Of a stretch of DNA of 64,000 nt, positions 9,665 to 41,082 are shown piece after piece. Where the stretch lies: contig NZ_SNZV01000002.1 of NCBI RefSeq assembly GCF_004364125.1, positions 1 to 64,000 of the forward strand, read 5' to 3'. Position 1 is the first letter of the stretch. Each line of letters opens with the position of its first letter. The notes under the pieces are model-generated. The model worked only from the letters and a program-made list of their open reading frames with translations, had not been told where the DNA came from and ran no database searches. A program made the translations under genes and the position numbers. This stretch comes from Sphingobacterium paludis. GTDB lineage: Bacteria; Bacteroidota; Bacteroidia; Sphingobacteriales; Sphingobacteriaceae.

Positions 9665-9698
9665 TACGCTGCTTTATACGCTATCAATTAAACGAAAG

Positions 9699-12992: not shown

Positions 12993-13068
12993 ATAACCGA
13001 ACGTAGCGCGTTCATTGAAAATAATCTGAACAATCCATATGGCCTGTAATAAACACATTGATTCACGT

Positions 13069-15895: not shown

Positions 15896-16017
15896 CCCCT
15901 TTCCGTGTAACGTTCTTGTTGCAACGCATGAAAGCGCAGGACGGTTGTACCAGTTTAACTCGCTACATTGTAGGTGATAACCACATAAATCTATACATAA
16001 TACAAAAAGTTAAGGCT

Positions 16018-19000
16018 ATGAAAACAACGATTCAGTTTCGTTTTCTATTAACAATTCTGCTCGGCTTCGGCTACGAAGCTTTTGCGCAAGAATCATGGAA
16101 AGGGAAGGTCGTGGACGCATCGCAACAACCTATTGCGGGGGTTTCCATAACCATTAAAGGTGATGCCGCGCGTGCTGTATCCTCGGATGCAAACGGCGCA
16201 TTTGAATTATCTGCTAGGAAGGGCGAGATTCTGCTCTTCTCCTCAATTGAATATGAAAGTCGAGAATTTCAGCTTGGCGATTCGCAACCGCTTACCATCA
16301 CGCTCAAAAGCAAAGAAGAGGTGATTGATGAGGTGGTCGTTATTGGATACGGTACGCAAAGGCGTTCCAATGTTATTGCGCCAATTTCCAAATTTAACAC
16401 CGAAGGATTACAGGAGCGCCCCGTGATACGTGTCGATCAAGCGTTGGTGGGGCAGATGTCTGGCGTACGGGTGAAGCAAACGACAGGAATCCCGGGAAAG
16501 GGCCTCAGCGTTCAAGTTCGTGGCTCAGGCTCTATCAGCGCGGGAAGCGAACCACTGTACGTTATTGATGGATTTCCCCTAACCGTATCTTCTCCAAATG
16601 GCTCGGGTAATTACGCGGCGGGAAATCCTTTAGACAATATCAATCCGAACGACATCGAATCTATCGAAGTATTAAAGGATGCCTCCTCCGCAGCCATCTA
16701 TGGATCCAGAGCGGCAAACGGTGTTGTGCTCGTCACGACAAAGCGCGGGAAAACCGGGCAGGCAAGATTGAACTTCAATACCTATCTGGGCGCGTCAGAA
16801 GCGTACAGAAAACTGGATATGTTAAACGGCGAAGAGTGGATTGACCGGGCCATAGAGATGATTAATGCACAATGGGTGGCGTCTGGTAGCGGCCGCACGG
16901 CTAGTCAAACTACGGAGCAGCGAAGAGCGATTTTGGGATTGTCACCAGGGACCGTCAATGCATCGTTTATGTATGATGATCGATGGCTGCAGGCCGGCTA
17001 CCCGGGACTTCACTTGATGAATTGGCAGGACGAGGCTTACCGAAAGGGATTCGTGCAAAATTATCAATTGTCGGCATCGGGCGGAACCGATTTCGTAAAC
17101 TACTACATCTCGGGGAACTACATGGATCAAAAGGGTATCGTACAGGGGCTAGACTATAAAAATTACGCCCTGCGAGCCAACGTGGACGTCAAGCCTACAA
17201 AAAAATTGGCTTTCGGACTAAACTTGGCGCCAACCTATTCCGTAGCGAATGATCCGGGCGTCGAAGGGAAGGATAATATTATGCATCAGATCTATTCCAT
17301 GTCGCCCGTGCAAGACCATCCTGCGGGAACAGTGAATGTTTTCGAGAACGAAAAATACCCTTGGAGTGTTTCTACCAATGATCCTATTGCGAAGCTGAAT
17401 AACTATGTCGGTGAAAGTAAAATTGCACGTGTGCTAGCCAGTATGTATGGGCAATACGAAATTCTGGATCGATTAACCTTCAAGACAACCCTGAACGTAG
17501 ACCATACCGATCGCCAAGCAACAAGCTTTGTGCCTTACACCGTATCGGGGACGTTGGCTAGCCGCATCAACAATCCAAATCTTGCCACCTCCGGATCGGC
17601 GAATGGCTATCGCCGGCAGACTGTCGTGAACGAGAATACCTTGCATTATGATCTCGATATAGGCAAACACAATATCAGTGCCTTACTCGGGCATGCCTAT
17701 AATTACGATCGCTTGGATATCTCTTCAATCAGCTCGCAAGGCGGCTACACGAACAGCTCCATCCCGACGCTCAATGCTGCCGTGAGGACTGTTTCTTCCA
17801 CCGAAGCGAGCAAAAACTTAATGCTTTCCTACTTCGGCCGCTTGCAATACGCCTTTGCTAATAAGTATCTTTTTTCGGCAAGCTTGCGTCGCGATGGTTC
17901 ATCCCGCTTCGGTGCCAACACCAAATGGGGATGGTTTCCTTCCGTTTCTGCGGGTTGGCGTATGTCTGATGAAGCTTTCCTGAATTCGCTGACCTTCTTA
18001 AATGACTTCAAAATTCGAGGAAGCTATGGGGAGTCTGGAAATAATAATATTGGGGATTACAGCGGGATATCCGTTTTGGGCTTTAGCAACTACACGTTTA
18101 ATGGCGCGGTAGCGCCTGGGCAAGCTCCAGCGAATATCATTAACCCGAACCTTACCTGGGAAAAATCGCGTACGTTTGACCTCGGGGTCGATTTTGCGGT
18201 GTTCAATTCGCGTCTTTCGGGGTCGTTTGACTGGTATCAACGTACCAGTAGCAGTCTATTGCTGAATGTTCCGGCAATGTTTGCTTCAGGTTTTTCCAAC
18301 TACCTGGATAACGCTGGAGAAGTGAAAAGCCGCGGCTGGGATCTGGAATTGACCTCCCGCAATTTTGCCAGATCCAACTTTACTTGGTCAACCTCTTTCA
18401 ATCTCAGTCACAATAGTAATAAAGTAACCAAGTTGATTGGGAACCAGCAAGAGATCTTAATTCCATCTTCTTTTGACATCGAGCATAGCGTACTTCGTAT
18501 TGGCGAGCCGATGTATTCCATCTATGTGGTGCAACAGAACGGCGTATTAAGTCAGCAGGATATCAACAATGGTGCGCCTCTTTTTGGTAACCAAGTTGCC
18601 GGAGATCCGCGCTACGTCGATGCCAACGGCGATGGCGTAATTGATGCCAACGATCGGGTAATCGTTGGTCACCCCAATCCGGATTATGTATGGGGCATCA
18701 CGAATGATTTTCGATATAAGAATTTTGACCTCAGTGTATTGTTTCAGGGGCAAAGCGGCGGGCATATTTATTCCTTGCTGGGGCGTGCATTGGGAAGAAC
18801 CGGCCAAGAATCGACCGATAATGCCCTTGGTTTTTACCGTGATCGCTGGCGTTCGGAAGATGATCCGGGAGAAGGCCGTGTGGGTAAAGCTTCCTCCACA
18901 TTTGGGCGTATAAAAAACACCGACTGGTTGTACTCCTCCGATTACTGGCGCCTACGAAACGTTACTTTCGGCTACAACTTCAAAGATTTGCGCCTCGGCG

Positions 19001-19197
19001 GTAATAGCAAATTGAATAACGGCCGTCTCTACCTTACGCTGGAAAATTTTTGGGGACAGGATCAATATGATGGCGGCGTCAATCCGGAATCAGCAAACAC
19101 AAACCTGAGCGGGAGCAGCAGTTATCTCGAACCAGGCGATTATGGTGGGCTAGCACTTCCGAAGACAATCACTTTTGGTATTAACTTGACATTCTAA
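16018..19197 (+). CDS. SusC-like TonB-dependent outer-membrane transporter (first pair)
   Basis: 1059 aa. It starts with a signal peptide (LLTILLGFGYEAFAQ), then a carboxypeptidase-regulatory-like domain (GKVVDASQQPIAGVSITIKG), then the TonB-box region DEVVVIGYGTQRR, then a plug domain (VRGSGSISAGSEPLYVIDGF, GSRAANGVVLVTTK) and a C-terminal beta-barrel ending in aromatic FGINLTF. SusC proteins import oligosaccharides bound by their SusD partner. The start at 16018 is preferred over the longer frame from 15916 because it begins the signal peptide. The susD gene starts 4 bp after its stop. The substrate is inferred as a rhamnogalacturonan fragment from the neighbours. Confidence 0.96.
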   Translation: MKTTIQFRFLLTILLGFGYEAFAQESWKGKVVDASQQPIAGVSITIKGDAARAVSSDANGAFELSARKGEILLFSSIEYESREFQLGDSQPLTITLKSKEEVIDEVVVIGYGTQRRSNVIAPISKFNTEGLQERPVIRVDQALVGQMSGVRVKQTTGIPGKGLSVQVRGSGSISAGSEPLYVIDGFPLTVSSPNGSGNYAAGNPLDNINPNDIESIEVLKDASSAAIYGSRAANGVVLVTTKRGKTGQARLNFNTYLGASEAYRKLDMLNGEEWIDRAIEMINAQWVASGSGRTASQTTEQRRAILGLSPGTVNASFMYDDRWLQAGYPGLHLMNWQDEAYRKGFVQNYQLSASGGTDFVNYYISGNYMDQKGIVQGLDYKNYALRANVDVKPTKKLAFGLNLAPTYSVANDPGVEGKDNIMHQIYSMSPVQDHPAGTVNVFENEKYPWSVSTNDPIAKLNNYVGESKIARVLASMYGQYEILDRLTFKTTLNVDHTDRQATSFVPYTVSGTLASRINNPNLATSGSANGYRRQTVVNENTLHYDLDIGKHNISALLGHAYNYDRLDISSISSQGGYTNSSIPTLNAAVRTVSSTEASKNLMLSYFGRLQYAFANKYLFSASLRRDGSSRFGANTKWGWFPSVSAGWRMSDEAFLNSLTFLNDFKIRGSYGESGNNNIGDYSGISVLGFSNYTFNGAVAPGQAPANIINPNLTWEKSRTFDLGVDFAVFNSRLSGSFDWYQRTSSSLLLNVPAMFASGFSNYLDNAGEVKSRGWDLELTSRNFARSNFTWSTSFNLSHNSNKVTKLIGNQQEILIPSSFDIEHSVLRIGEPMYSIYVVQQNGVLSQQDINNGAPLFGNQVAGDPRYVDANGDGVIDANDRVIVGHPNPDYVWGITNDFRYKNFDLSVLFQGQSGGHIYSLLGRALGRTGQESTDNALGFYRDRWRSEDDPGEGRVGKASSTFGRIKNTDWLYSSDYWRLRNVTFGYNFKDLRLGGNSKLNNGRLYLTLENFWGQDQYDGGVNPESANTNLSGSSSYLEPGDYGGLALPKTITFGINLTF

Positions 19198-19201
19198 GAT
19201 A

Positions 19202-20710
19202 ATGAAAAAGACACTGTATATAGCACTTGGTTGCGTGCTGCTGAGCTCTTGTGATATGGATCTCGGCCAACAACCTATATCCGAAGGGACTTCGGAAACA
19301 TACTTCCAAACGGTTAATGATTTCACCCAAGGCCTCACAGCCATCTATAGTGCCGCGCGCACCTATCCCGATCGTTTGCTTAACCTCTCCGAAACCCGTT
19401 CCGACAATCTTTACGCCGTGTCTGACGGTGGTGTTCGTGATTGGGAAGGCGTAAACAGCTTTCAAAAAAACATCAATGCCAATCCTTATGTGGTTGAGGC
19501 GTGGGAAGATAATTACGTCGGCGTCTTTCGCGCCAACAATTATTTGGAGCAGCTGGCCACAAAGGGAGAAAATGTAGTGACAGATGCCGTGCTTCGAAGA
19601 AGGATGGAAGCCGAGGCACGTTTCTTAAGAGCCTTCTTTTATTTTGATTTGGTTCGCTATTTTGGGCAGGTGCCGCTTATCGATCGTGTGGTGTCCGATG
19701 CAGAAGCCAAAACCATTGGGCGAAGCCCCGTGCCAGAGCTATGCAATTTTATTGAACAAGATTTAGTATTCGCTATCGAAAATTTGCCGAAATCGAGTGA
19801 CTATGCTGCGGTAGATGCCGGTAGAGTAAATACCTACGCAGCAAAAATGCTTTTAGGCTTATTGTATATGAGTAAGTCGGGTCCGACATTAGGTGTAGAT
19901 GGTATCGGCCAAAACAGCAACGAGTGGAGTAAGGCGATGAGCCAGTTTAACGAGATCATTGCAAGTGGTGAATTTGCTAGCTTAGAAAACTACGCATCCA
20001 TCTTTGATTACGGCAACGAACGAAACAGGGAAGTGATCTTCAATATCGAATATGTAAGTGGGGGAAACCCTGTTGTTGGTGCTACATTTCCGTGGGTCTT
20101 GGTGCCCGATAGGTATTTTCAGTCCCTTGGCTTCACCGCACAAGGGGGCTTAACCATCCGCCCGGTCTCTACAGATTTGATTAATACATATGCAGCGGAG
20201 GATGTACGCGCGTCGTTTAGCATTCAAAATGGTTTTACAGACGGACCTGTCGTTGAAAACCGGCCTTTTGTCAAAAAATTTGTGGATATAAGCAAGGTGC
20301 CCACAACAAGCAGACTAGATTGGCCGATTAATTTTATTGTTTTTCGATATACGGATCTCCTGTTGTTAAAAGCGGAATGTATACTGAACGGTGCTGAAGG
20401 AGCTGCGACAGCAGACGTAGATGCTGTGGTTAATGCGGTTCGTCGACGTGCTGGCTTGACGGCCCCTTTGGTCGGCGTTACGATGGAACAGTTGCTTAAG
20501 GAGCGCCGTCGCGAATTTATCGGCGAGGGATCCCGCTGGTTCGATCTTATCCGTTCAGGAACGGTAGAATCCACCATGAAAACATGGATTGCAGCGGAAG
20601 ATCGTGGTCGGCAGATGGAAGACTTTATCATCGACTATGTTCTTTACCCTGTACCGCAATCGGAACTGAACAAAAGCCCTGGACTTTACACACAAAATAA
20701 GGGATATTAG
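19202..20710 (+). CDS. SusD-like glycan-binding lipoprotein (first pair)
   Basis: 502 aa. The signal peptide ends in the lipobox LLSSC. The SusD/RagB fold shows the N-terminal domain (TYFQTVNDFTQGLTAIYSA) and the TPR-like helices (EARFLRAFFYFDLVRYFGQVPLI). The C-terminal signature (LLKAECILNG, LLKERRREFIGEGSRWFDLIRSG) completes it. It would sit on the outer surface as the lid of the SusC barrel and capture oligosaccharides. It lies 4 bp after susC and is followed by a candidate terminator. Confidence 0.96.
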   Translation: MKKTLYIALGCVLLSSCDMDLGQQPISEGTSETYFQTVNDFTQGLTAIYSAARTYPDRLLNLSETRSDNLYAVSDGGVRDWEGVNSFQKNINANPYVVEAWEDNYVGVFRANNYLEQLATKGENVVTDAVLRRRMEAEARFLRAFFYFDLVRYFGQVPLIDRVVSDAEAKTIGRSPVPELCNFIEQDLVFAIENLPKSSDYAAVDAGRVNTYAAKMLLGLLYMSKSGPTLGVDGIGQNSNEWSKAMSQFNEIIASGEFASLENYASIFDYGNERNREVIFNIEYVSGGNPVVGATFPWVLVPDRYFQSLGFTAQGGLTIRPVSTDLINTYAAEDVRASFSIQNGFTDGPVVENRPFVKKFVDISKVPTTSRLDWPINFIVFRYTDLLLLKAECILNGAEGAATADVDAVVNAVRRRAGLTAPLVGVTMEQLLKERRREFIGEGSRWFDLIRSGTVESTMKTWIAAEDRGRQMEDFIIDYVLYPVPQSELNKSPGLYTQNKGY

Positions 20711-20867: not shown

Positions 20868-21899
20868 ATGAACAATCAGGAATTCATAAAGAGTATTCAG
20901 ATCAGTGACTTTTCCTCCACACCCAAATATCTTCAGTTGGCCGATGCCGTAATTGATGGCGTAAAGAACAGCCACCTGCGACAAGGGGATATTTTACCGT
21001 CGATAAATGAGCTGAGCGTACATCTAGATATTTCTCGTGATACTGTAGAAAAGGGCTATAAGCACTTGAAAAGTTTAGAGATCATCTCGTCTACGCCCGG
21101 CAAAGGCTACTTTGTGGAGAAGTCTGATGTGATCCACAAGCAGAAAATAGCACTCTTTCTGAATAAGTTAAGCGCTCACAAGAAGATTGTTTACGACGCT
21201 TTTGCCGATGAACTTGGCTCAGAAGCGTCATTGGATCTTTTCGTTTACAACAGCGATATCTCGCACCTTCGCACCTTACTGCTGAACTTAACCAAACAAT
21301 ACGATCGATACGTGATCTTTCCGCATTTTAAAGAGGGGCGCGATCAAGCTCCCGAGGTGCTTGCACTCATGCCCGCTGAGAAGCTACTGTTGCTCGGCAA
21401 AATGGTAGACGGTGTAGCCGGCGAATTTGACGCCGTGTATGAAAACTACGAAAAGGACATTTATGAGGCGTTGGAGAAAGCGCTAGAGCCCTTATCCAAA
21501 TACAGAACACTTAAATTGGTATTTCCAGATAACAGCGACTATCCAAAAGCGATCATTAAGGGCTTTTACAAGTTTTGTCAGCAATATGCATTCGACCATA
21601 TGTTGGTCGGAAACCTCACTAAAGAGCCGCTGAAAAAGGGCGAGTGTTACATCAATATCGCAGAAGATGATCTGGTACTTATCCTAGAAAAATGCATCGC
21701 TAAAAATTATAAGGTGGGCAAGGATGTCGGCATCATCTCCTACAATGAAACACCCTTAAAGAAATTTATACTGAACGGTATTACCACCATCTCCACAGAT
21801 TTCGAACTCATGGGCAAGTATGCAGCGCAGATCGTAAAATCGAAAGAAACAAAACAACTCGAAGTACCTTTTTACGTCAACATTAGACCTTCTATTTAA
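20868..21899 (+). CDS. GntR-family regulator with LacI-type sugar-binding sensor domain
   Basis: 343 aa. Residues 15-85 are a GntR winged helix (KYLQLADAVIDGV, GDILPSINELS, ISRDTVEKGYKHLKSL, TPGKGYFVE). Residues from about 90 on resemble a periplasmic-binding/LacI effector domain (LLLNLTKQYDRYVIFPHF, DVGIISYNETPLKKFILNGITTIS). Such proteins bind a sugar or sugar phosphate and release or engage DNA. It sits between the two halves of the pectin locus and is the only regulator inside it, so it is the best candidate for controlling it. The perfect inverted operator-like pair around its own promoter suggests autoregulation. Ligand unknown. Confidence 0.88.
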   Translation: MNNQEFIKSIQISDFSSTPKYLQLADAVIDGVKNSHLRQGDILPSINELSVHLDISRDTVEKGYKHLKSLEIISSTPGKGYFVEKSDVIHKQKIALFLNKLSAHKKIVYDAFADELGSEASLDLFVYNSDISHLRTLLLNLTKQYDRYVIFPHFKEGRDQAPEVLALMPAEKLLLLGKMVDGVAGEFDAVYENYEKDIYEALEKALEPLSKYRTLKLVFPDNSDYPKAIIKGFYKFCQQYAFDHMLVGNLTKEPLKKGECYINIAEDDLVLILEKCIAKNYKVGKDVGIISYNETPLKKFILNGITTISTDFELMGKYAAQIVKSKETKQLEVPFYVNIRPSI

Positions 21900-22184: not shown

Positions 22185-23294
22185 ATGATTCGTAAAAGAG
22201 GGAACGACGTACGATCATTTTCCAGAAGACATTTCATCCAATCGGGGCTGTATACCCTCTCGGGTGTGCTTTTTATGCAACCTTTGTTTGGTAATACCCA
22301 GAAGTATTTACCCGAAGCAGCCTTTACGTTAAAACCCATCGGCCGATCTTTTCAGCTCGCAGATTATTACATCTGGTGCTCATCACCCATTTGGGGCGAT
22401 GACGGCAAGGTCCATCTCTTTTATTCACGTTGGCGAAAAGAGCGTGGAATGAGTGGTTGGATTCGCGGGTCTGAGATTGCACATGCAGTGGCCGATAGTC
22501 CTTTCGACAGCTTTCAGCATCAATCGGTGGTGTTGGCACCACGCGAAGGATATTGGGATGGCACGACCTGCCATAACCCACTGATCAAAAAAATAGGAGA
22601 TACCTACTACCTGTTCTACATGGGCAATGCCAATGGAAAAACCGACACGAAACGCATCGGCATCGCAACGGCCAAAACTATTAATGGTCCTTGGAAACGG
22701 AGGGATGAGCCGTGCTTATTGCCAGGCGAGGCCGGTGCTTGGGATGATCATTGCACCACCAATCCGGCTTTTATAAAAGGGGATGACGGAAAATACTGGT
22801 TGTTTTATAAGTCATGGAATACTGCAGAATACCAACAGGCAAAAGGAGCCGTCCGAGGTAATCGAAAATACGGACTAGCAAAGGCCAATCATCCGGCAGG
22901 ACCTTATGAGCGCGTGTCAGAAAATCCTGTACTCGATTTTTCGGATCAGCCCAATAATGCGCAACTGGAAGATGCCTTCGTTTGGAAAGAGCAGGGAACC
23001 TATTACATGATCGCGCGCGACATGGGCTTTTTCAACCACGAATTTGGATTACTGCTCTCCTCAAAAGATGGCTTGAACTGGTCTCCTCCAGGGGTCTCCT
23101 ACCTTGCCATGAAAGATTATGTGACACAGCCTATGCCCGCAGCTCATTTGAAGCGATTTGGTCGTTTAGAACGCCCGATGTTGCTTCTGGACCCGGTAAC
23201 GGAGAAGCCGCAATTTTTATTTGGTGCCACGCAAGGCGGGGAGTATGACAGCGCAACAACCTTTGTATTTGAAATTGTATCGTATACACTTTGA
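22185..23294 (+). CDS. GH43-like five-bladed beta-propeller glycosidase
   Basis: 369 aa. A twin-arginine-like signal (SRRHFIQSGLYTLSG) is near the N-terminus. The rest repeats blade-like strands of a five-bladed propeller (HLFYSRW, TYYLFYMGNANG, YWLFYKSW, TYYMIARDM) with acidic residues placed as in GH43/GH32-type glycosidases (DYYIWCSSPIWGDDG, AWDDHCTTNPAF, QLEDAFVW). The exact CAZy family cannot be fixed by eye. The context suggests removal of a side-chain sugar from rhamnogalacturonan. It starts a five-gene run (GH43-like, GH28, DUF4450, GH65-like, GH105) with gaps of 28 bp or less. Confidence 0.75.
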   Translation: MIRKRGNDVRSFSRRHFIQSGLYTLSGVLFMQPLFGNTQKYLPEAAFTLKPIGRSFQLADYYIWCSSPIWGDDGKVHLFYSRWRKERGMSGWIRGSEIAHAVADSPFDSFQHQSVVLAPREGYWDGTTCHNPLIKKIGDTYYLFYMGNANGKTDTKRIGIATAKTINGPWKRRDEPCLLPGEAGAWDDHCTTNPAFIKGDDGKYWLFYKSWNTAEYQQAKGAVRGNRKYGLAKANHPAGPYERVSENPVLDFSDQPNNAQLEDAFVWKEQGTYYMIARDMGFFNHEFGLLLSSKDGLNWSPPGVSYLAMKDYVTQPMPAAHLKRFGRLERPMLLLDPVTEKPQFLFGATQGGEYDSATTFVFEIVSYTL

Positions 23295-23311: not shown

Positions 23312-24715
23312 ATGATGAAGAAATTAATCGGAAGCATCCTTCTTTGTTTGAGCCTGATATGCGCAATGGCGCAAGAGACAAAATGGACAGCAGCTTCGCA
23401 ACCGCTTGCAGAGGTTAAAGCGTTAAAAAAGCAGATTGTCGCACCGAAATTCCGCAATAAAGATTATGCCGTTACCAGCTTTGGAGCAAAGGGAGATGGA
23501 ATAACAAAAAATACTGAAGCCATTCGAAAAGCTATAGAGCAGTGCAATAAAGACGGCGGCGGGCGCGTCGTCGTACCCGAAGGCATCTTTTTGACCGGCG
23601 CTATTTATCTAAAAAGCAATGTGAATTTACACATTCAGGAAGGTGCTACCATCTTGTTTAGTCGCGATAGTGCAGACTACCCGATGGTCTTCACCCGATG
23701 GGAAGGCATGGAATGCATGAATTTCTCTCCCTTTATCTATGCGTATGGCGAAGAGAACATCGCTATTACGGGAAAAGGCCTTTTGGATGGTAATTCCGAC
23801 AACGACCATTGGTGGTATTGGTGCGGCGCGCGCAAGTATGGCTGGAATGAAAGTAAACCCGGCGAGCAAAAGCCTGCAAGAGCCCTTCTGCACCAACAGA
23901 TGGCTGAAGAGATGGATCCTCGTAAAAGGATATATGGCGATGGACATTTCCTACGGCCCAACTTTGTGCAGCCCTATCACTGTAAAAATGTGTGGATTGC
24001 CGATGTGAAGATGATCAATTCGCCGATGTGGAACCTTAATCCGGTATTGTGTGAGAATGTGCTTATCGAGCGGGTTAAAGTCGTAAGTCATGGACCGAAT
24101 AACGACGGATGCGATCCAGAAGCATGCAAAAACGTGTGGATCAAAGATTGTTATTTTGATACGGGAGATGATTGTATTGCCATCAAATCTGGGCGAGACG
24201 AGGATGGCCGTAATATAGGTCGCCCTGCGGAAAATCACATTATCGAAAATTGTATGATGAAAGATGGCCATGGTGGTGTGGTCATCGGTAGCGAGATAGC
24301 GGGTGGTGCAAGAAACATCTATGCGCTTAACAATGTGATGGATAGCCCAAATCTAGACCGCGCTCTGCGCATAAAAACAAGCTCTAGCCGCGGAGGCACC
24401 ATTGAAAATGTCTTTTTCTATAACACCGAAGTAGGGCAATACAAGGAGGCTGCCGTACGGTTTAATATGTTTTACGAAAAGCCGGGCAAGCATATCCCGA
24501 CGATCCGCAATATATGGGTGGAAAACCTAGAAGTTAAGGGCGGCGGTAAGTATGCCGTGCTATCCAATGCCTACGAATCATCGCCGGTGACCAACTTTAC
24601 GATGATTAATTGTAAGATCGACGGTGTTCAAGAACCCTACAAGGTGGACTACTTGAAGCAAGTGACGCTTAAGGAAGTGGTCATTAATGGCAAACCACTC
24701 TCATCATTTGACTAA
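23312..24715 (+). CDS. GH28 polygalacturonase / rhamnogalacturonan hydrolase
   Basis: A 467-aa exported protein with signal peptide ending at about Ala20. The GH28 active-site motifs are all present in order: PNNDGCDP (262-269, a variant of NTDG), GDDCIAIKSG (285-294), GHGGVVIGSE (319-328) and RIK (353-355). It hydrolyses alpha-1,4 or alpha-1,2 galacturonosyl bonds, probably as an exo-acting enzyme in the periplasm (inference). It begins 17 bp after the GH43-like gene, and its TAA overlaps the next ATG by one base (TAATG), which indicates translational coupling. Confidence 0.93.
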   Translation: MMKKLIGSILLCLSLICAMAQETKWTAASQPLAEVKALKKQIVAPKFRNKDYAVTSFGAKGDGITKNTEAIRKAIEQCNKDGGGRVVVPEGIFLTGAIYLKSNVNLHIQEGATILFSRDSADYPMVFTRWEGMECMNFSPFIYAYGEENIAITGKGLLDGNSDNDHWWYWCGARKYGWNESKPGEQKPARALLHQQMAEEMDPRKRIYGDGHFLRPNFVQPYHCKNVWIADVKMINSPMWNLNPVLCENVLIERVKVVSHGPNNDGCDPEACKNVWIKDCYFDTGDDCIAIKSGRDEDGRNIGRPAENHIIENCMMKDGHGGVVIGSEIAGGARNIYALNNVMDSPNLDRALRIKTSSSRGGTIENVFFYNTEVGQYKEAAVRFNMFYEKPGKHIPTIRNIWVENLEVKGGGKYAVLSNAYESSPVTNFTMINCKIDGVQEPYKVDYLKQVTLKEVVINGKPLSSFD

Positions 24716-27700
24716 TGAGGTATAAACTACTGCTAGCTGCACTAGTACTGGGTTCTTTGTTACAAGGGCCATGTTATGCGCAAGCCAAACATTGGCAAAA
24801 ACAAGAACGCCAACTACACTATACGGCGGATCAGGGCGACTTTTTGTTGGTGAATGGCCGATACCGATTTAATCGGGCACTCTATGGTGATAACCGCGCG
24901 TCACGCGTTGAAGCGGGAGACTTGCCGGAATTTGCCCTGTATCTTCCCGGGATGGGCGGTAATTTACAGTTCGTCCTGGCACGGGATGGTCGGTATAAAA
25001 AGCTCATTGATGTCGATCGTATAGAAACACGCTACCGAGCAGGCAAAATGACGTACCGCATTCATGACGAACTTCTTGGGAGCGGGAGCCTGACCTTGAC
25101 GCTGCTTGCCCAATATAAAGAGGAAGGTTTGGTGTTGAAAGTATCCGGCGAAGGTGTGGATCCAAAAGCACTTTTGTATAGTATATATGGTGGTGCTAGT
25201 GGTAAAACGTTCAGCCGAAATGGTGATATCGGTGCCGATCCGGAGTCTAGCTTCTATCTGTTGCCTGCATACGCCAAGGGCAATATTTTTGATGTGCAGA
25301 AGACAGGGTTCACCTTGCGCTATGTGGGCAAGCGAAATGAAGAACAGGTTGTACACGGCGACTTCGGAGGCGCGCAACAGCTAGCCTTAGCGGATGCTGC
25401 GGTGCTGCAGTCCATAGCTGATCTGGAGCAGCGCGAGCCTACAAATAGCCCGATCGTCTATGCGAAATATACAGTGCTGAACAAGCCTGTATATATTCAA
25501 GTAGCAAAGGGGCCGCTAGCTGGAAAAGTAAAGACCAACAAAGCACTATCTGAGCTGTTTGCCGAGGCTGACCAAGCCCGGCAGGCGGTGGCCAGTCGCG
25601 TCAAACTGCGCACGCCCGATCAACACATCAACACTATTGGCGAGACGCTAGCGCTGGCAGCAGACGCTATTTGGGAAAGCCCCAGTTACCTGCATGGCGC
25701 TGTCGCATGGCGCATGCGGCTCAATGCTTGGCGAGGGGCTTATGCCGCCGATGCGCTCGGTTGGCATGATCGGGCCAAAGAGCATTTTTCCGGCTATCTG
25801 CGGTCCCAAGTATTGGAGCCAAACGCCGGCCCCGTGGTTATGGACACCGCCTTGAATTTAGCACGGCACATCGAAAAAATGGGAACCTCGGTGTTTAGTA
25901 GTGGTTATATATCACGAAATCCTAATAACAATCAAGTGCCTCACCATTATGATATGAATTTGGTGTTCTTCGATCAATTGTTTACCCATTTCGATTACAC
26001 CGGCGACAAGAGCTATTTAAAGGAGGTTTGGCCTAGTATCTTGCGGCATTTGGCTTGGGAAAAGCGCAACTTCGATACCGATAACGATGGCCTTTATGAT
26101 GCCTATTGTGCTATTTGGGCGAGTGATGGCCTGCAGTATTCGGGAGGCGGCGTGACCCACAGTAGTGCTTACAACTATCGGGCGAATCGTGCTGCTGCCA
26201 AGCTAGCAGCTATCTTGGGCATCGATCCGCAGCCCTTTACCGCGGAGGCCGATAAAATTGCAAATGCATTAAAAGCCCGGTTGTGGATCGCAAATCAAGG
26301 TCACTTTGCGGAATTTGAGGATCAATTGGGAAACAGATTACGGCACGAAAGCCCAGGGTTGTGGACAATCTACCATATCGCCGATGCCTTTCTGTTGGAT
26401 GATTTTGAAAGCTACCAGAACACGCAATACATACATAACCATTTGCCGCATATCCCTATACGGGTTAAAGAACAAACGGAGCCAAATTTATATACCCTGG
26501 CAACAAGCACCTGGCAGCCTTATACTTGGTCGGTCAATAATGTGGCGCTAGCCGAAAATTTGCAAGCCGCACTGGCATTCTGGCAATCTGGCCGTCATGA
26601 GGATGCTTACCTACTTTGGAAAAGCAATTTGATAGAGAGTATGTACCATGGCATCAGCCCAGGTAACTTCCAGCAATTGTCGCATTACGATGCTTTTCGG
26701 GGAGAACTATACCGCGACTTCGCAGATCCTATTGGCGTAGCATCGCGCACGTTAGTGGAAGGACTGTTTGGATTCTTACCGCGCTTAATGGACAAGGAGA
26801 TCCTTGTCCGTCCTGGTTTTCCTCCATCTTGGGATTTTGCTGAAATAGCATTGCCGCAATGGCAGTATACGTACCGCAAGACAAAAAGTGAAACGCATTT
26901 CGATATCCGTACCCAATTTGGACAGCCGCTCAAAATGAAAATGGAGCTCCCAATACGTTATACGAAAGTAACAGCAGTAACTGTAAATGGAAAAGATGTG
27001 CCATGGTCGCTGAAATCTACCGCTATAAACATGCCTGTCATCATTTTCGAAACCACGGCATCAGCCAATTTTCAGGTTGAGATCAAGGGAGAAGGTACAT
27101 TGGATCTTTCTGCAGCAGCTGTTTACGAACAACCCTACAGTGAAGATTTTGTTTTGCCTTTGGGCAAAGATCAGGTGATGGGCGAGGTTTACGATCCGCA
27201 GCAGCTATTACGTGGTCATCAGGGAAATCGGTTTCAACTGCAGTCAGCGATGCGGAAAGGCACCTTTTTCGTGCAGGTACAAGCCGGGCAAATGAACTAT
27301 TGGCGAGCCGTCGATCTAGCGCTTGTGGAGCCGGTACAACATTATTTTTTTAGTCAGGATGGTAAGCATACGTTACGTTTGAAAAATATAGGCACACAAG
27401 CCTATAACCTAGCGCTGAAGGCAGGAGCTTTCGAACGAAAGGTAGTGTTGACATCCGGCGAAGAATGTACCATGGACATCTCGAGTGCCATACTGACGAA
27501 AGGTGCCAACACTTTTGATCTAAGGGCAGGTGATGCCACTTGGACCATAGCCAATAGCTACTGGGAAATCGATCATCCGCAAGCATATGCTCCTCAAGAT
27601 CTTTCTACATTTTACAACGCACGTGTAAGCGATATTTTTGAACAACGCTACCTGTCGCCACGGCCTGTAGGACCGACGTTGCAATTGCCTTGGCAAGGAA

Positions 27701-28329
27701 TAGGCAACTGGTGCTATCCGTTAACAACAGCAAATATTGATGATCAAGGATTGATGGACCAGCGAAAAGATGATATCGTTACCTACCTCGGTATTCCGTT
27801 TCTGATCAAGGGAACACAGCGCAATATCATGTTCACCAGCCAGTGGGATAACTATCCGACCAAAGTGGAAGTTCCACTTTCAGGAAAAGCAGAAAAGCTG
27901 TATCTACTCATGGCCGGCTCCACGAACCCGATGCAGTCGCAAATCGTGAACGCAAAGGTCCGCGTACACTATATGGATGGACATGAGTCGATCTTGGAAT
28001 TACGTAACCCAACCAATTGGTGGCCTATTGAGCAGGATTACTTGGACGACAATTATGCCTTTGAGTTACCCGATGCCACGATTCCTTATCGGGTACAGCT
28101 AAAGACAGGGGTCTTATATAAAGGGGGCAGCCTGAGTCAATATGATGATATCAAAGGTCTTTCTTCGCGTGCAATAGATGGCGGTGCCGCCAGCATCTTG
28201 GATCTTCCACTTGATCCTTCTAGGGAACTGAAATCCTTAAGCCTGATCTGTGAAGCCAATGATGTCGTAATCGGCATTATGGCGGCTACCCTATTACAAA
28301 ATAATGGACATAAAATAGTGAACAGATAG
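24715..28329 (+). CDS. DUF4450 multidomain (alpha/alpha)6-barrel glycosidase-like protein
   Basis: A 1204-aa exported protein (signal peptide to CYAQ). The N-terminal section (DFLLVNGRYRFNRALYGDN, GDLPEFALYLPGMGGNLQFVL) matches DUF4450. The middle (about 300-710) has helical-hairpin repeats with aromatic/acidic pockets typical of (alpha/alpha)6 glycosidases: RMRLNAWRGAYAADALGWHD, NFDTDNDGLYDAYCAIWASD, WQPYTWSVNN. The last 400 residues look like beta-sandwich modules. No activity is known to me for this type. Its place inside a pectin operon, coupled to GH28, suggests action on an RG-I side chain or decorated backbone. One of the best unknown-function candidates here. Confidence 0.7.
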   Translation: MRYKLLLAALVLGSLLQGPCYAQAKHWQKQERQLHYTADQGDFLLVNGRYRFNRALYGDNRASRVEAGDLPEFALYLPGMGGNLQFVLARDGRYKKLIDVDRIETRYRAGKMTYRIHDELLGSGSLTLTLLAQYKEEGLVLKVSGEGVDPKALLYSIYGGASGKTFSRNGDIGADPESSFYLLPAYAKGNIFDVQKTGFTLRYVGKRNEEQVVHGDFGGAQQLALADAAVLQSIADLEQREPTNSPIVYAKYTVLNKPVYIQVAKGPLAGKVKTNKALSELFAEADQARQAVASRVKLRTPDQHINTIGETLALAADAIWESPSYLHGAVAWRMRLNAWRGAYAADALGWHDRAKEHFSGYLRSQVLEPNAGPVVMDTALNLARHIEKMGTSVFSSGYISRNPNNNQVPHHYDMNLVFFDQLFTHFDYTGDKSYLKEVWPSILRHLAWEKRNFDTDNDGLYDAYCAIWASDGLQYSGGGVTHSSAYNYRANRAAAKLAAILGIDPQPFTAEADKIANALKARLWIANQGHFAEFEDQLGNRLRHESPGLWTIYHIADAFLLDDFESYQNTQYIHNHLPHIPIRVKEQTEPNLYTLATSTWQPYTWSVNNVALAENLQAALAFWQSGRHEDAYLLWKSNLIESMYHGISPGNFQQLSHYDAFRGELYRDFADPIGVASRTLVEGLFGFLPRLMDKEILVRPGFPPSWDFAEIALPQWQYTYRKTKSETHFDIRTQFGQPLKMKMELPIRYTKVTAVTVNGKDVPWSLKSTAINMPVIIFETTASANFQVEIKGEGTLDLSAAAVYEQPYSEDFVLPLGKDQVMGEVYDPQQLLRGHQGNRFQLQSAMRKGTFFVQVQAGQMNYWRAVDLALVEPVQHYFFSQDGKHTLRLKNIGTQAYNLALKAGAFERKVVLTSGEECTMDISSAILTKGANTFDLRAGDATWTIANSYWEIDHPQAYAPQDLSTFYNARVSDIFEQRYLSPRPVGPTLQLPWQGIGNWCYPLTTANIDDQGLMDQRKDDIVTYLGIPFLIKGTQRNIMFTSQWDNYPTKVEVPLSGKAEKLYLLMAGSTNPMQSQIVNAKVRVHYMDGHESILELRNPTNWWPIEQDYLDDNYAFELPDATIPYRVQLKTGVLYKGGSLSQYDDIKGLSSRAIDGGAASILDLPLDPSRELKSLSLICEANDVVIGIMAATLLQNNGHKIVNR

Positions 28330-28356: not shown

Positions 28357-30501
28357 ATGAAAAAGAATATCATCTTCGGAATTGCGTTGCTGCTCTTTGC
28401 AGCCTGTCAAACGCAGCAGTCGAACAAAATAGACCGGAAAGCCGTGGTGCAACGACACAACGTTTTTAATAACAGCATGGATACGCTAGCCTCTTTGACC
28501 GTTGGCAATGGTGCTTTTGCCTATACCGTGGATGCTACGGGTCTGCAATCTTTTCCGGCATATTATAAAAATGGGGTTTCTTTAGGCACGCAATCCGAAT
28601 GGGGCTGGAATAGTTTTCCAAACACCGGAAAGTTTAGCTTTGAGGAAACGCTTAAATCGTACGATTTTAATGGGGAAGGTCGTGAGGCGAAGTACAGCAT
28701 ACAACACAAGGAGCCGGGTCGGCATCGGGATGCAACGGAGTATTATCGGGTTAATCCGCATCGTTTGCAACTAGGGAATGTTGGCTTTGAGATTCAGCTC
28801 AAAAATGGCGCATTAGCCAACGTCCAGGATATTCAGGACATTAAACAAACCATTGATCTTTGGACAGGTTTGATCCACAGCGTTTTTCAAGTAGAAGGTG
28901 AACCTGTGGAGGTGTGGACCGCTGCTGGGCAGACCAGCGACCACGTTGCGGTAAAGGTGTCTTCGCCTTTACTTGCTGCAAGGCGTATCAAGGTATCCGT
29001 CCGTTACCCTTACCCTACGGGCAAGTTTTTAGATGAGGCGGCTTATTACGACGAGGAGGCAAAACATACCTCCACGTTGTTGATGCAAAATAGCACGACG
29101 GCGCTGCTGGAACATCGCTTGCCGGGAACGAGCTATTTTACCCGGCTGCATTTTTCTGAAGGACAATTTGCCGAGCAATCCAAACACCATTTTGTCTTGA
29201 CGCCGTCACCGCAATCGGATACGTTTGAATTGGCTTTTGCCTTTGCCCAAAAAAATGAATTTGATGAAAATAAGCTCGGTTATGCACTCACCCAACAGGA
29301 GAGTGCCGACGCTTGGGAAAGGTACTGGCAGAGCGGTGCTGCGGTAGACTTCGCCGGTAGTACGGATCCGCGCGCCCATGAGCTCGAGCGTCGCGTGGTG
29401 CTGTCGCAATACTTGACGAAAGTGCAGTGCGGCGGAAGCAACCCGCCGCAGGAAACCGGGTTGACGTTCAACAGTTGGTATGGAAAGCCGCACACCGAGA
29501 TGCATTGGTGGCATGGCGTGCATTATGCCCTGTGGGGGCGTCCAGAGATTATGGAGAAAACCCTCGGTTATTACTTCAAAACCTTCGATAAGGCAAAGCT
29601 TTTGGCGGAGCGACAAGGATACCAAGGTGTTCGCTGGATTAAAATGTCTGATAATAAAGGCAACGAAAGCCCGTCATCCGTTGCTGCATTTCTCATTTGG
29701 CAACAGCCACACATCATTTATATGACCGAATTAGCGTATCGAGACCAAACCGATACGGCCCTATTGCACAAGTATAAAGAATTGGTTTTCGCTACCGCTG
29801 ATTTTATGGCAGACTATGCATACTACGACAAAGAAAAAGACCGCTATAACCTGGGTCTGGGTGTCATTCCTGCACAAGAGGTGTTTAAAGCGGCAGAGAC
29901 GAGAAATCCCACCTATGAAGTGGCCTATTGGGATTGGGCATTGCGGATTGCACAAAAGTGGAAAGAACGCCTCGGCGAGCCTCCTGTACAAAAATGGAAC
30001 GATGTAATCGATAAATTGGCACCGCTACCGGTGCAAGGCAACGTGTACTTGGCCACCGAAACCGCTACGGATTCCTACACCTTTCCAAAGTGGATGACCG
30101 ATCATCCGGCGGTTTTGGGTGCGCTTGGTATGGTGCCCGAGTCGCCCAAACTTGACAAGACCATCATGAAAAATACATTGGATACCGTGTGGGCAAAATG
30201 GTCATGGAAAGATACTTGGGGCTGGGATTTTCCCATGACGGCTATGAATGCCGCTCGGCTAAACTTGCCTGAAAAAGCGTTGGATGCTCTTTTTATGGAT
30301 ATTCAAACAAACACCTACCTAAAAAATGGACATAATTATCAGGATGATAGGCTGCGTATATACTTACCTGGAAACGGTGGGCTACTGACAGCGGTCGCTA
30401 TGATGTTGGAAGGTTGGGATGCCTCCACCGAAGAGCTGCCCGGATTTCCGAAAAACGGGTCATGGAAAATAAAGAAAGAAGGTTTTAAGAAAATGCCCTA
30501 A
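28357..30501 (+). CDS. GH65/GH95-like six-hairpin glycosidase lipoprotein, substrate unknown
   Basis: 714 aa. It has a lipoprotein signal (LLLFAAC) and then an N-terminal beta-sandwich (SLTVGNGAFAYTVDATGLQ, a pattern shared with GH65/GH95 enzymes). A six-hairpin barrel follows (TEMHWWHGVHYALWGRPEIM, QGVRWIKMSDNKGNESPSS, TWGWDFPMTAMNAARL). The barrel places it in the GH65/GH95/GH15 superfamily, but I cannot confirm catalytic residues or family. Bacterial GH65 members are mostly disaccharide phosphorylases, whereas a lipid-anchored, exported form points to a hydrolase. It sits 4 bp before GH105 and 27 bp after DUF4450. Confidence 0.7.
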   Translation: MKKNIIFGIALLLFAACQTQQSNKIDRKAVVQRHNVFNNSMDTLASLTVGNGAFAYTVDATGLQSFPAYYKNGVSLGTQSEWGWNSFPNTGKFSFEETLKSYDFNGEGREAKYSIQHKEPGRHRDATEYYRVNPHRLQLGNVGFEIQLKNGALANVQDIQDIKQTIDLWTGLIHSVFQVEGEPVEVWTAAGQTSDHVAVKVSSPLLAARRIKVSVRYPYPTGKFLDEAAYYDEEAKHTSTLLMQNSTTALLEHRLPGTSYFTRLHFSEGQFAEQSKHHFVLTPSPQSDTFELAFAFAQKNEFDENKLGYALTQQESADAWERYWQSGAAVDFAGSTDPRAHELERRVVLSQYLTKVQCGGSNPPQETGLTFNSWYGKPHTEMHWWHGVHYALWGRPEIMEKTLGYYFKTFDKAKLLAERQGYQGVRWIKMSDNKGNESPSSVAAFLIWQQPHIIYMTELAYRDQTDTALLHKYKELVFATADFMADYAYYDKEKDRYNLGLGVIPAQEVFKAAETRNPTYEVAYWDWALRIAQKWKERLGEPPVQKWNDVIDKLAPLPVQGNVYLATETATDSYTFPKWMTDHPAVLGALGMVPESPKLDKTIMKNTLDTVWAKWSWKDTWGWDFPMTAMNAARLNLPEKALDALFMDIQTNTYLKNGHNYQDDRLRIYLPGNGGLLTAVAMMLEGWDASTEELPGFPKNGSWKIKKEGFKKMP

Positions 30502-30505: not shown

Positions 30506-31633
30506 ATGAAAAAGATCTATTTATTACTCTGTGCAGCAACACTGCTACAAACGCTCCATGCACAGCAATTTACAGATAAGAAGGAGCTATTACAAAAGCT
30601 GCGGACGGCGAATGACTATTTTATGAAAAAATGGCCAGACCCCGCCAAGCGAATCGTGACCAACAAAGATCGCGCAGCAAATATTTGGACGCGAGGTGTT
30701 TACTATGAAGGTCTCCTCGCTTTCTATACCATAGATAAGCAAAAGAACTATTATGACTATGCTGTGGAATGGGGTGAGAAGCATGATTGGAAGCCCGTTC
30801 GAGGCGAGGTCTACACCAGACATGCCGACAATCAAAATTGCGGGATGACGTATATCGATCTCTATCGTATTGATCCCCAGCCCGAACGTATAGCGGCTAT
30901 CAAAATGAATATTGATTCGCTTATTCGGAGTGGACGCGTTGACGATTGGACCTGGATCGATGCTATCCAAATGGCGATGCCGATATTCGTAAAACTCGGT
31001 GTAACCTTGAAAGATACGGCATACTTTAATCATATGTACAAAATGTACCAGCACATCAAGTATGTTGAAGGAGGGCATGGCCTGTATAATCCGAAAGACC
31101 AGCTGTGGTGGCGCGATAAAGATTTTATTCCGCCATATAAAGAGCCTAATGGCGAGGATTGCTATTGGTCGCGCGGGAATGGCTGGGTGTTGGCTGCATT
31201 GGCGCTTGTCCTACAGGAACTGCCAAAATCTGACCCACATTACAAGGAATATCTGCAAGACTTTAAAAGCTTAGCGACAGCGTTGTTACCGCTTCAAAGA
31301 GCGGACGGCTTTTGGAACGTAAGTTTGCATGACCCTAAACATTACGGCGGAAAAGAAGCTTCGGGGACAGCGCTATTCGTCTACGGTATGGCTTGGGGAA
31401 TCAATAACGGCCTGCTCGATAAAAGCGCGTTTTTACCAAGTATAGAGAAAGCTTGGCTGGCCTTGGCTAATGAAACCATTCAACCCTCCGGCTTTCTAAG
31501 TTATGTACAATCCACCGGCAAAGAACCCAAAGATGGTCAGCCCGTGACAGCGGAGAAGATGCCAGATTTTGAAGACTATGGCTTGGGCTGCGTGCTCTTA
31601 GCCGGAACGGAAGTATATAAGATGCTCGAATAA
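30506..31633 (+). CDS. GH105 unsaturated rhamnogalacturonyl hydrolase (first copy)
   Basis: A 375-aa exported protein (signal peptide to LHAQ). The six-hairpin fold of the YteR/YesR family shows WTWIDAIQMAMPIFVKLG with the expected catalytic Asp152 and YWSRGNGWVLAALALVL. It removes the unsaturated galacturonate that PL11 leaves at the non-reducing end. It is the last gene of the five-gene run. The second GH105 (36864-38036) differs in its active-site neighbourhood, so the two probably prefer different oligomers. Confidence 0.92.
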   Translation: MKKIYLLLCAATLLQTLHAQQFTDKKELLQKLRTANDYFMKKWPDPAKRIVTNKDRAANIWTRGVYYEGLLAFYTIDKQKNYYDYAVEWGEKHDWKPVRGEVYTRHADNQNCGMTYIDLYRIDPQPERIAAIKMNIDSLIRSGRVDDWTWIDAIQMAMPIFVKLGVTLKDTAYFNHMYKMYQHIKYVEGGHGLYNPKDQLWWRDKDFIPPYKEPNGEDCYWSRGNGWVLAALALVLQELPKSDPHYKEYLQDFKSLATALLPLQRADGFWNVSLHDPKHYGGKEASGTALFVYGMAWGINNGLLDKSAFLPSIEKAWLALANETIQPSGFLSYVQSTGKEPKDGQPVTAEKMPDFEDYGLGCVLLAGTEVYKMLE

Positions 31634-31754: not shown

Positions 31755-34700
31755 ATGAGAAAATCGCATCACAACAGTATGCTTAAAGGCATTCTAATCG
31801 TACTGTTTTTTTGGGGAACGCTGCCCATGATTCGGGCGCAGAGCTTCTCTGCTACAGGGAAGGTAATAGACGAGAATAATCGGCCCATTCAAGGGGCGAG
31901 TGTGCAAGTAAAAGGAAAGCCGAACAGTACGCATACCGACGCAGCCGGGGCCTTTACACTAACGTTGAATGACAATGACGTATTACAGGTCAGTTTTGTA
32001 GGGTATGCCGCAAAGGAAATTCCCATCACGAACCGTCAACCCCTTGTTGTCACGTTGGTCAGTACGAATAATGATCTAGATGAAGTTGTCGTGATCGGCT
32101 ACGGCACATCCAGAAAGAGGGATTTAACAGGAGCCGTAGGATCGATCAAGGCGGATGAGATCCGAAACTTGCCCGTTACGACCGCTGCTCAAGCCATTAC
32201 AGGCAGGGTTGCTGGCGTGAATGTAGTGACCCAGAGTGGCGCCCCCGGGGCGGGTGTCAACATCTTGGTGCGTGGCGGAACCTCCATTACCGGATCAACA
32301 AAACCGCTATACGTGGTAGATGGTTTTGTGATGGAAGATGCCCTGATGAAAATAGATATCAACGATGTAGAAAACATCGATATTTTGAAAGATGCATCGG
32401 CCACGGCAATTTATGGTGCCCGTGGAGCTAACGGTGTGGTATTGATCACCACGAAGTCAGGAAAATCTGGGCGCACCACGATCGATTACAATGCCTACGC
32501 CAGTTTCGAAGGGTTGAGCCGTAAGCTAGACATGCTGCAGGTGGAAGACTATGTAAAATATCAGTACGAATACCAAACCTTGGCCGGGCGGCAACAAGAC
32601 TACGCTAATATGTTTGGTGGCAATGTCAATGATCCTGATTTTGCTACCGGAGCCTACGAACGCATCCGTCGCGATTACGGTACAAGGCCAGGCATCGATT
32701 GGCAAGAGGAAGTTTTTGGTGGGCAGGCGATGCTGCAGGCACATAATGTCAATGTATCCGGCGGGAGTGAGAAAACGAAACTGCTCCTTTCCTACAACAA
32801 CACCAATCAAGATGGCATCTTGGCCAAATCGGGCTTCCGCCGAAACAGCGTGCGCGCGAAGGTAAACCATGAACTACGCGAAGGCGTCAACATCGACTTT
32901 AATTCCCTATTTCAAGATGCAAACACCCAAGGTGGGGGCTCGCTCAATGGAATGCTAAAAATGTCGCTCTTGCAACCAGCCACAGGCGGAGCCCGCTTTA
33001 CGGACGAGCAGTTGCTGTATACCGATATTGCGGAAGAACTGCAGCTTATCAACTCGCAGTATGACGTGTACAACCCGATTATTATGAATGATGCCCTTAA
33101 TCGCGCCAAGGCAGCTCGCCTGGCCAACATCAACGTCGGGTTGACGGCCAACTTCTTAGAAGATTTTACCTTTCGAACATCAGGATCCTACCAATGGGGA
33201 CAAACGCGTACAGATTTTTGGGATGACGGACGAACCATCAACGCCCGCAATAACAAAGGTCCTTTTGGATCTATCAAAAACGCAGAAGGCTTTGAATGGC
33301 AATGGACAAATACCCTATCGTGGATGAAAGATTTTGGTAAGCACCATATAAATTTGCTAGCCGGTCATGAAGTCCGCTATGAGGAAAGTCAATCGCTCGC
33401 CCATCAGTATTATGAGTTTCCCAACAGTAACTTTGGCTTGAAAGATGTGAGTCTGGCTGGGCGCACCGAAAGAGGGGAGTCCGAAGCGGTTCGATACGGT
33501 CTTGTTTCCGGATTTTTTAGGGCTATCTACAATTATGATGACCGGTACCTTTTCACAGCCACCATGCGGGCCGATGGGGTATCCACATTTAGGGAGGGCA
33601 ACAAGTGGGGGGCTTTTCCTTCGGCTTCTGCGGCCTGGAATATCCATAATGAATCTTTCTTGAAAGACTCCGAGTTCGTTAACCAACTGAAACTGCGGGT
33701 TGGCTATGGCACAACGGGGAACGACAAAATCGGGAATACGCGCTATGCAACCTTATATGGGTCTACAGTTGCCGCTATGGGAAATACCACATTAGTGGGC
33801 GTTAAGCCAAGTTCGACGTTAGGAAACCCGATGTTGGTATGGGAGAAAACCCAAACCACCAATATAGCCGTTGACCTGTCCCTGTTTAACAGTCGGGTAA
33901 ATTTAACCACAGATTTCTACAACAATGAATCTAAAAATTTATTGCTGGAAGTCAATATCCCCACATCCACGGGCTATAGCAAGCAGTTTCAAAATATAGC
34001 AGAACTGCGAAACCGTGGGGTCGAATTTTCCCTGAATACACTAAATATCCGGCGCGACAATTTTCAATGGAAAACGGTGCTGAACTTGACGTTTAATCGA
34101 TCCAAAGTGAAAAGTCTTTACGGCAGTGGCGGAAACGACTATATGATCAATTCGTATGAATCCCGAATCAATTTTTATACGCAAGTGGGTGGCCCCGTCA
34201 GTACATTTTATGGATATCAGTACGATGGCGTATACACGACCGATGATTTCACCCAGCAGGCAGATGGAAGCTATCTGCTGAATGACGGTGTGGCTTCACT
34301 CAAAGGAAAAAACAGGTCAAGTATCAAGCCTGGAGATGTGAAGTACGTCCCTGTGGCCGGGGAAACAGACGCCAATGGTAACCCGGTTTGGTCTACCAAT
34401 GACCGTACGGAAATTGGCAGCCCTGAGCCCAAGTTCTTCGGCGGGTTCAACAACGAATTTATTTACAAAAGCTTCGATCTAAGCATCTTCCTCAATTTCG
34501 CTTATGGCAATAAGGCATTCAATATGAACACGCAACGGTTCATGGGGCCCTATCTCCCCAATCAAAATTCATTAGGACTGATGGCCGACCGCTTTACGTT
34601 GATTGATCCGGCTACGGGTGCGGAAACCACGGATTTGAATCGTCTTGCCACCTTAAACCCGAATCAACAGGATAAGAAGCAAATATGGAGCTTAAATTCT

Positions 34701-34991: not shown

Positions 34992-35002
34992 TTAGAAAAC
35001 CC

Positions 35003-36814: not shown

Positions 36815-36863
36815 GGGGTATGGTTAGCGCGGTTTAGTAAGGATACAATAAAAGATTTAAACG

Positions 36864-40865: not shown

Positions 40866-40882
40866 GTCGTTGATGTTAGGGG

Positions 40883-41078: not shown

Positions 41079-41082
41079 TATA

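What the first reader, a model, noticed from the sequence alone, without database searches (positions are those of the whole stretch)
24715..28329. DUF4450 giant in a pectin operon: probable new glycosidase
A 1204-aa exported protein with an (alpha/alpha)6-like middle region is translationally coupled (TAATG) to a GH28 enzyme and sits between known rhamnogalacturonan enzymes. No activity is known to me for this architecture, so it is a good candidate for an unclassified glycoside hydrolase.
Basis: partly seen in the sequence, partly recalled or inferred. Interest (0 to 1): 0.6.

Follow-up and report, generated by a model that had tools for sequence, protein, structure and literature searches.

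The report
Uncharacterised pectin-backbone glycosidase candidate (DUF4450)
The gene encodes a large exported protein with a sugar-cleaving enzyme fold and a strictly conserved putative active site, almost always found with one particular partner enzyme in gene clusters that digest the pectin backbone rhamnogalacturonan I; it is probably an enzyme of a family nobody has yet assayed.

Summary
ORF 24715-28329 (+) encodes 1204 aa with a signal peptide, a Pfam DUF4450 domain (E 4.5e-43) and a TAATG overlap with a GH28 gene. An AlphaFold2 model (pLDDT 83) gives a beta-sandwich, an (alpha/alpha)6 barrel and a jelly roll.

Asp471 aligns with the GH94 catalytic acid and is kept in 70 of 71 homologues. 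The GH94 phosphate-site Thr-Gly is replaced by a conserved YRDF[AGS]D loop, suggesting an inverting hydrolase, not a phosphorylase. GH78's own catalytic motifs are absent.

All 30 genomes with full-length DUF4450 also carry the downstream GH65-like gene, against 2 of 39 without. In Chryseobacterium both sit in one cluster with PL11, GH106, GH105, GH28 and L-rhamnose catabolism genes. Function is most likely exo-hydrolysis of RG-I oligosaccharides. The sugar released is unresolved: alpha-rhamnosyl is the leading guess, but every genome tested also has GH106. No paper in the held library names the family; no solved structure covers it.

The parts
24715..28329 (+). DUF4450 giant, 1204 aa, exported
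   Evidence: homologues
24715..24780 (+). putative signal peptide (residues 1-22; cut near AQA)
   Evidence: read from sequence; no dedicated predictor run
24943..25569 (+). PF14614 DUF4450 domain (res 77-285), part of the N-terminal beta-sandwich
25567..26784 (+). (alpha/alpha)6 catalytic-type domain (res 285-690); 53 of its 406 columns invariant in 71 sequences
26125..26127 (+). Asp471, putative general acid (WASD motif)
   Evidence: aligned with D492 of chitobiose phosphorylase 1v7v; kept in 70/71
26710..26727 (+). Y666-R-D668-F-A-D671 loop, putative general base (D668 or D671)
   Evidence: R667, D668, D671 invariant in 71; takes the place of the GH94 phosphate Thr-Gly
26785..27099 (+). jelly-roll domain after the barrel (res 691-795)
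27100..27576 (+). variable beta region (res 796-954), shortened or missing in many gut homologues
27577..28299 (+). conserved C-terminal domain (res 955-1195; NWWPIEQDY motif), no sequence match in Pfam or PDB
23312..24715 (+). GH28, related to BT4155-type alpha-galacturonidase (below equivalog cut-off)
28357..30501 (+). GH65-like partner, 714 aa; near-obligate companion; putative acid E437 and base E568
30506..31633 (+). GH88/GH105 unsaturated glycuronyl hydrolase
22185..23294 (+). GH43-like protein (weak)
20868..21899 (+). GntR-LacI-type regulator
9636..11036 (+). GH28 rhamnogalacturonidase, BT4153 equivalog
   Evidence: 757.8 bits, cut-off 650
11046..12992 (+). PL11 rhamnogalacturonan lyase
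13039..15807 (+). GH106, BT4145-like alpha-L-rhamnosidase
15916..20710 (+). first SusC/SusD pair
31755..38036 (+). second SusC, then a SusD-position ORF (35003-36814, no family scan run), then GH105
   Evidence: SusC and GH105; SusD from position and homologous loci only

Best explanation
An exported, probably periplasmic, inverting exo-glycosidase that works on rhamnogalacturonan-I oligosaccharides. Shown here: family, predicted fold, motif conservation, gene context and co-occurrence. Inferred: Asp471 protonates the glycosidic oxygen while a carboxylate of the conserved YRDF[AGS]D loop (Asp668 or Asp671) activates a water molecule, so one sugar is released with inversion. Inferred: it acts in sequence with the GH65-like enzyme encoded next to it and the GH28 exo-galacturonidase, after lyase (PL11), GH105 and acetylesterases have trimmed the oligosaccharide, and feeds monosaccharides (L-rhamnose among them) to the cell. 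Leading but weak guess for its target: an alpha-L-rhamnosyl linkage that GH106 does not accept; a side-chain sugar is about as likely.
For: Fold: AF2 model pLDDT 83, pTM 0.86. VIA-align: GH78 8iwf Z 23.8 over 419 residues, GH94 8bou Z 21.2 over 625 and 1v7v Z 20.8 over 622, GH142-containing BT_1020 5mqr Z 19.7. Remote homology: the family profile matches a GH78 profile (93.7%, E 1.9e-7, local) and a GH94 profile end to end (global 95.3%, 648 columns), while the unrelated GH28 profile and the GH65-like partner give nothing (E-values are for single comparisons). Acid: D471 aligns with Asp492 of chitobiose phosphorylase and is kept in 70 of 71. Base loop: R667, D668, D671 invariant, E664 70/71; GH94 sequences have Thr-Gly there. 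Invariant columns concentrate in the barrel: 53 of 406, against 12 of 260 in the N-domain. Context: 84 of 90 full-length loci have the GH65-like gene on the same strand, 79 of them downstream. Co-occurrence 30/30 versus 2/39 genomes (Fisher 1.6e-17, not corrected for phylogeny). A Chryseobacterium genome holds one cluster: BT4153-type GH28 homologue, BT4156-like GH2, GH106, PL11, GH105, RhaT, RhaD-ADH, RhaI, a rhamnulokinase-like kinase, L-lactate dehydrogenase and then this operon. Flavobacterium and other loci carry BT4151/BT4156-type RG-I galactosidases.
Against: No activity, ligand or mutant data. The catalytic base rests on alignment at about 12% identity, and hhalign itself puts a 3-residue gap at that loop. 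All 20 genomes tested that carry DUF4450 also have GH106, so a rhamnosidase is not missing from the pathway. One divergent homologue (L153) has lost D471, so the family includes at least one probably inactive or altered member. The conserved C-terminal domain is unexplained.
Confidence: 0.68

Rival explanations
1. A GH94-like phosphorylase: same fold and acid, but phosphate is the nucleophile.
For: Whole-module match to GH94 (Z about 21 over about 625 residues) and D471 aligned with the GH94 acid.
Against: The GH94 phosphate-site Thr-Gly (WYTGS) is replaced by the conserved YRDF[AGS]D loop; the GH94 ENGxxxxH His lies in a stretch that does not carry over. The protein has a signal peptide, whereas GH94 enzymes are, to my knowledge, cytosolic.
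Confidence: 0.07
2. An alpha-L-rhamnosidase of GH78 in the strict sense.
For: Best Z-scores are GH78; PF17389 passes its cut-off; rhamnose catabolism genes adjacent in Chryseobacterium.
Against: GH78's acid motif DCPQRDER.GW.GD aligns with a stretch that lacks the Glu, and the TIWE base motif is not present. The PF17389 match covers only 109-221 of 339 positions. GH106 is present in the same genomes.
Confidence: 0.08
3. A side-chain trimming enzyme (for example on a galactosyl, arabinosyl, fucosyl or glucuronosyl branch of RG-I) rather than a backbone enzyme. This overlaps with the best explanation, which leaves the sugar open.
For: GH106 and GH28 already cover the backbone; the partner resembles GH65, GH139 and GH95 enzymes that act on alpha-linked branch sugars; BT_1020, which carries a GH142 domain, is among the structural neighbours; an arabinose operon lies at 39186-43355.
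Against: Nothing specific; context does not separate backbone from branch.
Confidence: 0.3
4. A non-catalytic carbohydrate-binding or scaffold protein.
For: DUF4450 also exists as a stand-alone 256-aa protein in RG-I loci of Bacteroidaceae (L111, L158); L153 lacks the acid.
Against: Barrel residues including D471 and the YRDFAD loop are the most conserved of the protein.
Confidence: 0.1

Closest known systems
GH78 alpha-L-rhamnosidases (e.g. 8iwf, Aspergillus niger Rha-2)
   Same: (alpha/alpha)6 barrel; highest structural Z (23.8, 419 residues); detectable profile homology
   Different: GH78 catalytic motifs absent; only about 13% identity; different domain set
GH94 phosphorylases, clan GH-Q (e.g. 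1v7v, 8bou)
   Same: beta-sandwich, helical linker, barrel and jelly roll in the same order over about 625 residues; catalytic Asp position
   Different: phosphate-site Thr-Gly replaced; exported; extra C-terminal beta domains
GH142 (BT_1020) and GH116 (8ic6)
   Same: barrel fold; 8ic6 is the best sequence match in PDB (E 2e-5, local)
   Different: 8ic6 sequence match limited to about 110 residues; no full-length sequence similarity
Bacteroides thetaiotaomicron RG-I locus BT4145-BT4183 (reviewed in PMC8002723)
   Same: same enzyme types around the gene (GH28, GH106, lyase, GH105-type, GH2); a short DUF4450 protein sits between BT4146- and BT4151-type genes in a Bacteroidaceae relative (L111)
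   Different: that relative's RG-I locus has only a 256-aa DUF4450 protein without the barrel

Membership tests
Pfam PF14614 (DUF4450) | profile score above gathering cut-off | tested here: met
   147.6 bits vs 27, profile 1-211 of 212
GH78 | (alpha/alpha)6 barrel homologous to Bac_rhamnosid6H | tested here: inconclusive
   PF17389 27.8 bits vs 24.5 but only 109-221 of 339; Z 23.8
GH78 | catalytic acid motif D.P.R.E..GW.GD and base motif T.WE | tested here: not met
   aligned stretches lack both; alignment uncertain at this identity
GH94 / clan GH-Q | sandwich-linker-barrel-jelly-roll architecture | tested here: met
   model 9-770 aligned over about 625 residues, Z about 21; collinear profiles
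GH94 / clan GH-Q | catalytic Asp | tested here: met
   D471 = D492 of 1v7v, 70/71 conserved
GH94 / clan GH-Q | phosphate-binding Thr-Gly before the last barrel helix | tested here: not met
   [AGS]670-D671 counted back from the shared LFG/ILG turn, or a gap by hhalign
GH65 / clan GH-L | profile homology to the GH65-like neighbour | tested here: not met
   hhalign 0.0-0.9%; FjGH65A still appears at Z 17.6 as a shared barrel fold
GH116 | PF04685 match | tested here: inconclusive
   27 vs 26.3 bits, 94-211 of 361 only; nucleophile Glu not examined
any CAZy family | listing in CAZy | not testable with these tools
   CAZy/dbCAN not available; no NCBIfam equivalog, no paper in the held library names DUF4450 or PF14614

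The most novel reading that the evidence does not exclude
Founding member of a new glycoside hydrolase family, an exported hydrolase built on the GH94 phosphorylase architecture, which together with a new GH65-like family cleaves an RG-I feature that no characterised pectin enzyme handles.
Probability: 0.5. Interest if true: 0.65.

Novelty: new variant of a known kind. Interest (0 to 1): 0.5.

Why it matters
RG-I is a major part of dietary and soil pectin. A widespread pair of exported enzymes that is retained with the RG-I machinery across Sphingobacterium, Chryseobacterium, Flavobacterium and gut Bacteroidaceae, but has no assigned activity, points to an unassigned step or linkage in its breakdown. 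The case also gives a concrete test of how a GH94 phosphorylase scaffold might become a hydrolase: replacement of the phosphate-site Thr-Gly by an Asp-bearing loop.

Tried and rejected
(1) 'Rhamnosidase by exclusion': the Chryseobacterium operon itself lacks GH106, but a genome search found GH106 in all 20 DUF4450 genomes, so this argument was dropped. (2) GH95-type base Asp (D.NFG motif): hhalign to GH95 is weak and does not place the Asps together. (4) The 16-bp element of Chryseobacterium is not in the window (0 hits). (5) Literature: no relevant hits for DUF4450, PF14614 or BT4148; the key RG-I paper (Luis et al. 2018) is not in the library. (7) GH65-like and DUF4450 proteins are not homologous by profile.

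Full report
What is there. The ORF at 24715-28329 (+) is intact, 1204 aa, starts with a signal peptide-like stretch and overlaps the GH28 stop codon as TAATG. DUF4450 (PF14614) covers residues 77-285 with 147.6 bits; three (alpha/alpha)6 models touch residues 408-539 just above their cut-offs. There is one copy in this genome.

Family. A pattern scan of 84,980 species genomes found 300 stretches that encode relatives; the best 80 loci kept all hold full-length homologues at 45-85% identity, from Sphingobacterium, Chryseobacterium, Flavobacterium, Parapedobacter, Niastella and others. In an even draw of the phylum, 15 of 395 genomes have the domain; in the family of genome G238 (Bacteroidaceae-like), 37 of 201. 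Forms from that family are 980-1140 aa; what they lack is mainly the variable middle beta region.

Structure. AlphaFold2 on 46 homologues: pLDDT 83, pTM 0.86. Foldseek's top hits are GH94 phosphorylases (E 1e-18). VIA-align ranks GH78 rhamnosidases first (8iwf Z 23.8, rmsd 3.0, 419 residues) and GH94 next with far longer coverage (8bou Z 21.2, rmsd 3.7, 625 residues; model 9-768). Residues 780-1182 of the model are barely tested by these searches.

Remote homology by sequence. hmmsearch against PDB finds GH116, GH78 and GH94 chains weakly (E about 1e-4 to 1e-2). Profile-profile comparison with GH78 and GH94 alignments built from session genomes gives 93.7% for GH78 (local, E 1.9e-7) and, in global mode, 96.5% and 95.3%; GH94 in local mode gives 47%. 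The unrelated GH28 profile and the GH65-like partner give under 1%. The GH94 alignment is collinear from the TPD..IN start of the barrel, through D471, to the LFG..P...PGFP..W exit into the jelly roll.

Active site. On 71 sequences, 53 of 406 barrel columns are invariant, against 12 of 260 in the N-domain, 0 of 159 in the middle region and 23 of 241 in the C-terminal domain. D471 (WASD) sits on Asp492 of Vibrio chitobiose phosphorylase in two searches. That D492 is the catalytic acid is my knowledge, not a tool result. The loop Y-R667-D668-F-[AGS]-D671 before the last barrel helix is invariant at R667, D668 and D671; the GH94 sequences carry WxTGS there. My reading is that a base carboxylate has replaced the phosphate grip, making this an inverting hydrolase. 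Which Asp is the base is not settled, because hhalign gaps this loop by three residues. GH78's acid motif and WE base motif are not present at the aligned positions.

Context. In the window: PL11, BT4153-type GH28, GH106, SusCD, GntR-type regulator, GH43-like, GH28, DUF4450, GH65-like, GH105, SusC, a SusD-position gene and GH105, then arabinose catabolism genes. Across 90 full-length loci the GH65-like gene is on the same strand in 84, and a GH28 homologue is present in 75. By genome, 30 of 30 with full-length DUF4450 have the GH65-like gene and 2 of 39 without do (genomes are related, so the p-value overstates independence). The GH65-like model matches FjGH65A (7fe3, Z 32.8) and human PGGHG (Z 28.9); E437 and E568 are its invariant acid-pair candidates, by analogy with PGGHG E430/E574.

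Chryseobacterium. In genome G012 the operon closes an RG-I/rhamnose cluster: BT4153-type GH28 homologue, BT4156-like GH2, GDSL esterase, GH106, PL11, GH105, RhaT, SusCD, RhaD-ADH, RhaI, rhamnulokinase-like kinase, L-lactate dehydrogenase, GntR, and then the convergent operon with GH65-like, DUF4450, GH28, an esterase and GH105. A 16-bp element GACAGTGCAGGATAAT lies upstream of the GH28 gene; its 12-bp core is in 37 of 39 loci. A second copy precedes the GH105 operon in three genomes; these two copies are the only hits with at most one mismatch in each. This ties DUF4450 to deacetylation and trimming of RG-I oligosaccharides.

What remains open. The sugar and linkage. Rhamnose is favoured by fold rank and by the adjacent rhamnose genes, but GH106 occurs in every genome tested, so DUF4450 must do something GH106 does not. 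The near-obligate GH65-like partner suggests a two-step removal. I give about 0.68 to 'inverting exo-glycosidase on RG-I oligosaccharides' and about 0.25 to an alpha-rhamnosyl target.

Novelty. Pfam knows the domain only as DUF4450, no NCBIfam equivalog applies, no solved structure covers it, and no paper in the held library names it. CAZy was not available, so a recent classification cannot be excluded.

Noticed in passing
window 28357-30501: GH65-like protein related to FjGH65A and PGGHG folds (Z 32.8, 28.9) but far below family cut-offs by sequence; near-obligate companion of DUF4450 and a second candidate new enzyme family.
   Followed up: partly
L111:9889-10656 (-), L158:8868-9635 (+): Stand-alone 256-aa DUF4450 proteins next to GH28 genes in Bacteroidaceae-like RG-I loci; in L111 between BT4146- and BT4151-type genes. 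The barrel is absent, so they are probably accessory or binding proteins.
   Followed up: partly
L153:7633-10920 (+): Divergent DUF4450 homologue that lost the putative acid (WASD to NSSP) and the HHYDMN motif (RIYNNN): likely altered or inactive paralogue.
   Followed up: no
upstream of GH28 in Chryseobacterium loci, e.g. L020:7562: Highly conserved non-palindromic element GACAGTGCAGGATAAT about 100 bp before the operon and again before the GH105 operon; role (operator or promoter element) unknown.
   Followed up: partly
window 27577-28299: C-terminal domain with NWWPIEQDY motif, nearly as conserved as the catalytic barrel, without any sequence match in Pfam or PDB.
   Followed up: partly
window 39186-45131: L-ribulokinase, L-arabinose isomerase and sodium-solute symporter genes directly downstream of the pectin cluster.
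   Followed up: no
L110: Relatives of the window's arabinose-region genes (64% and 75% identity) also lie near DUF4450 in a different family (genome G150).
   Followed up: no
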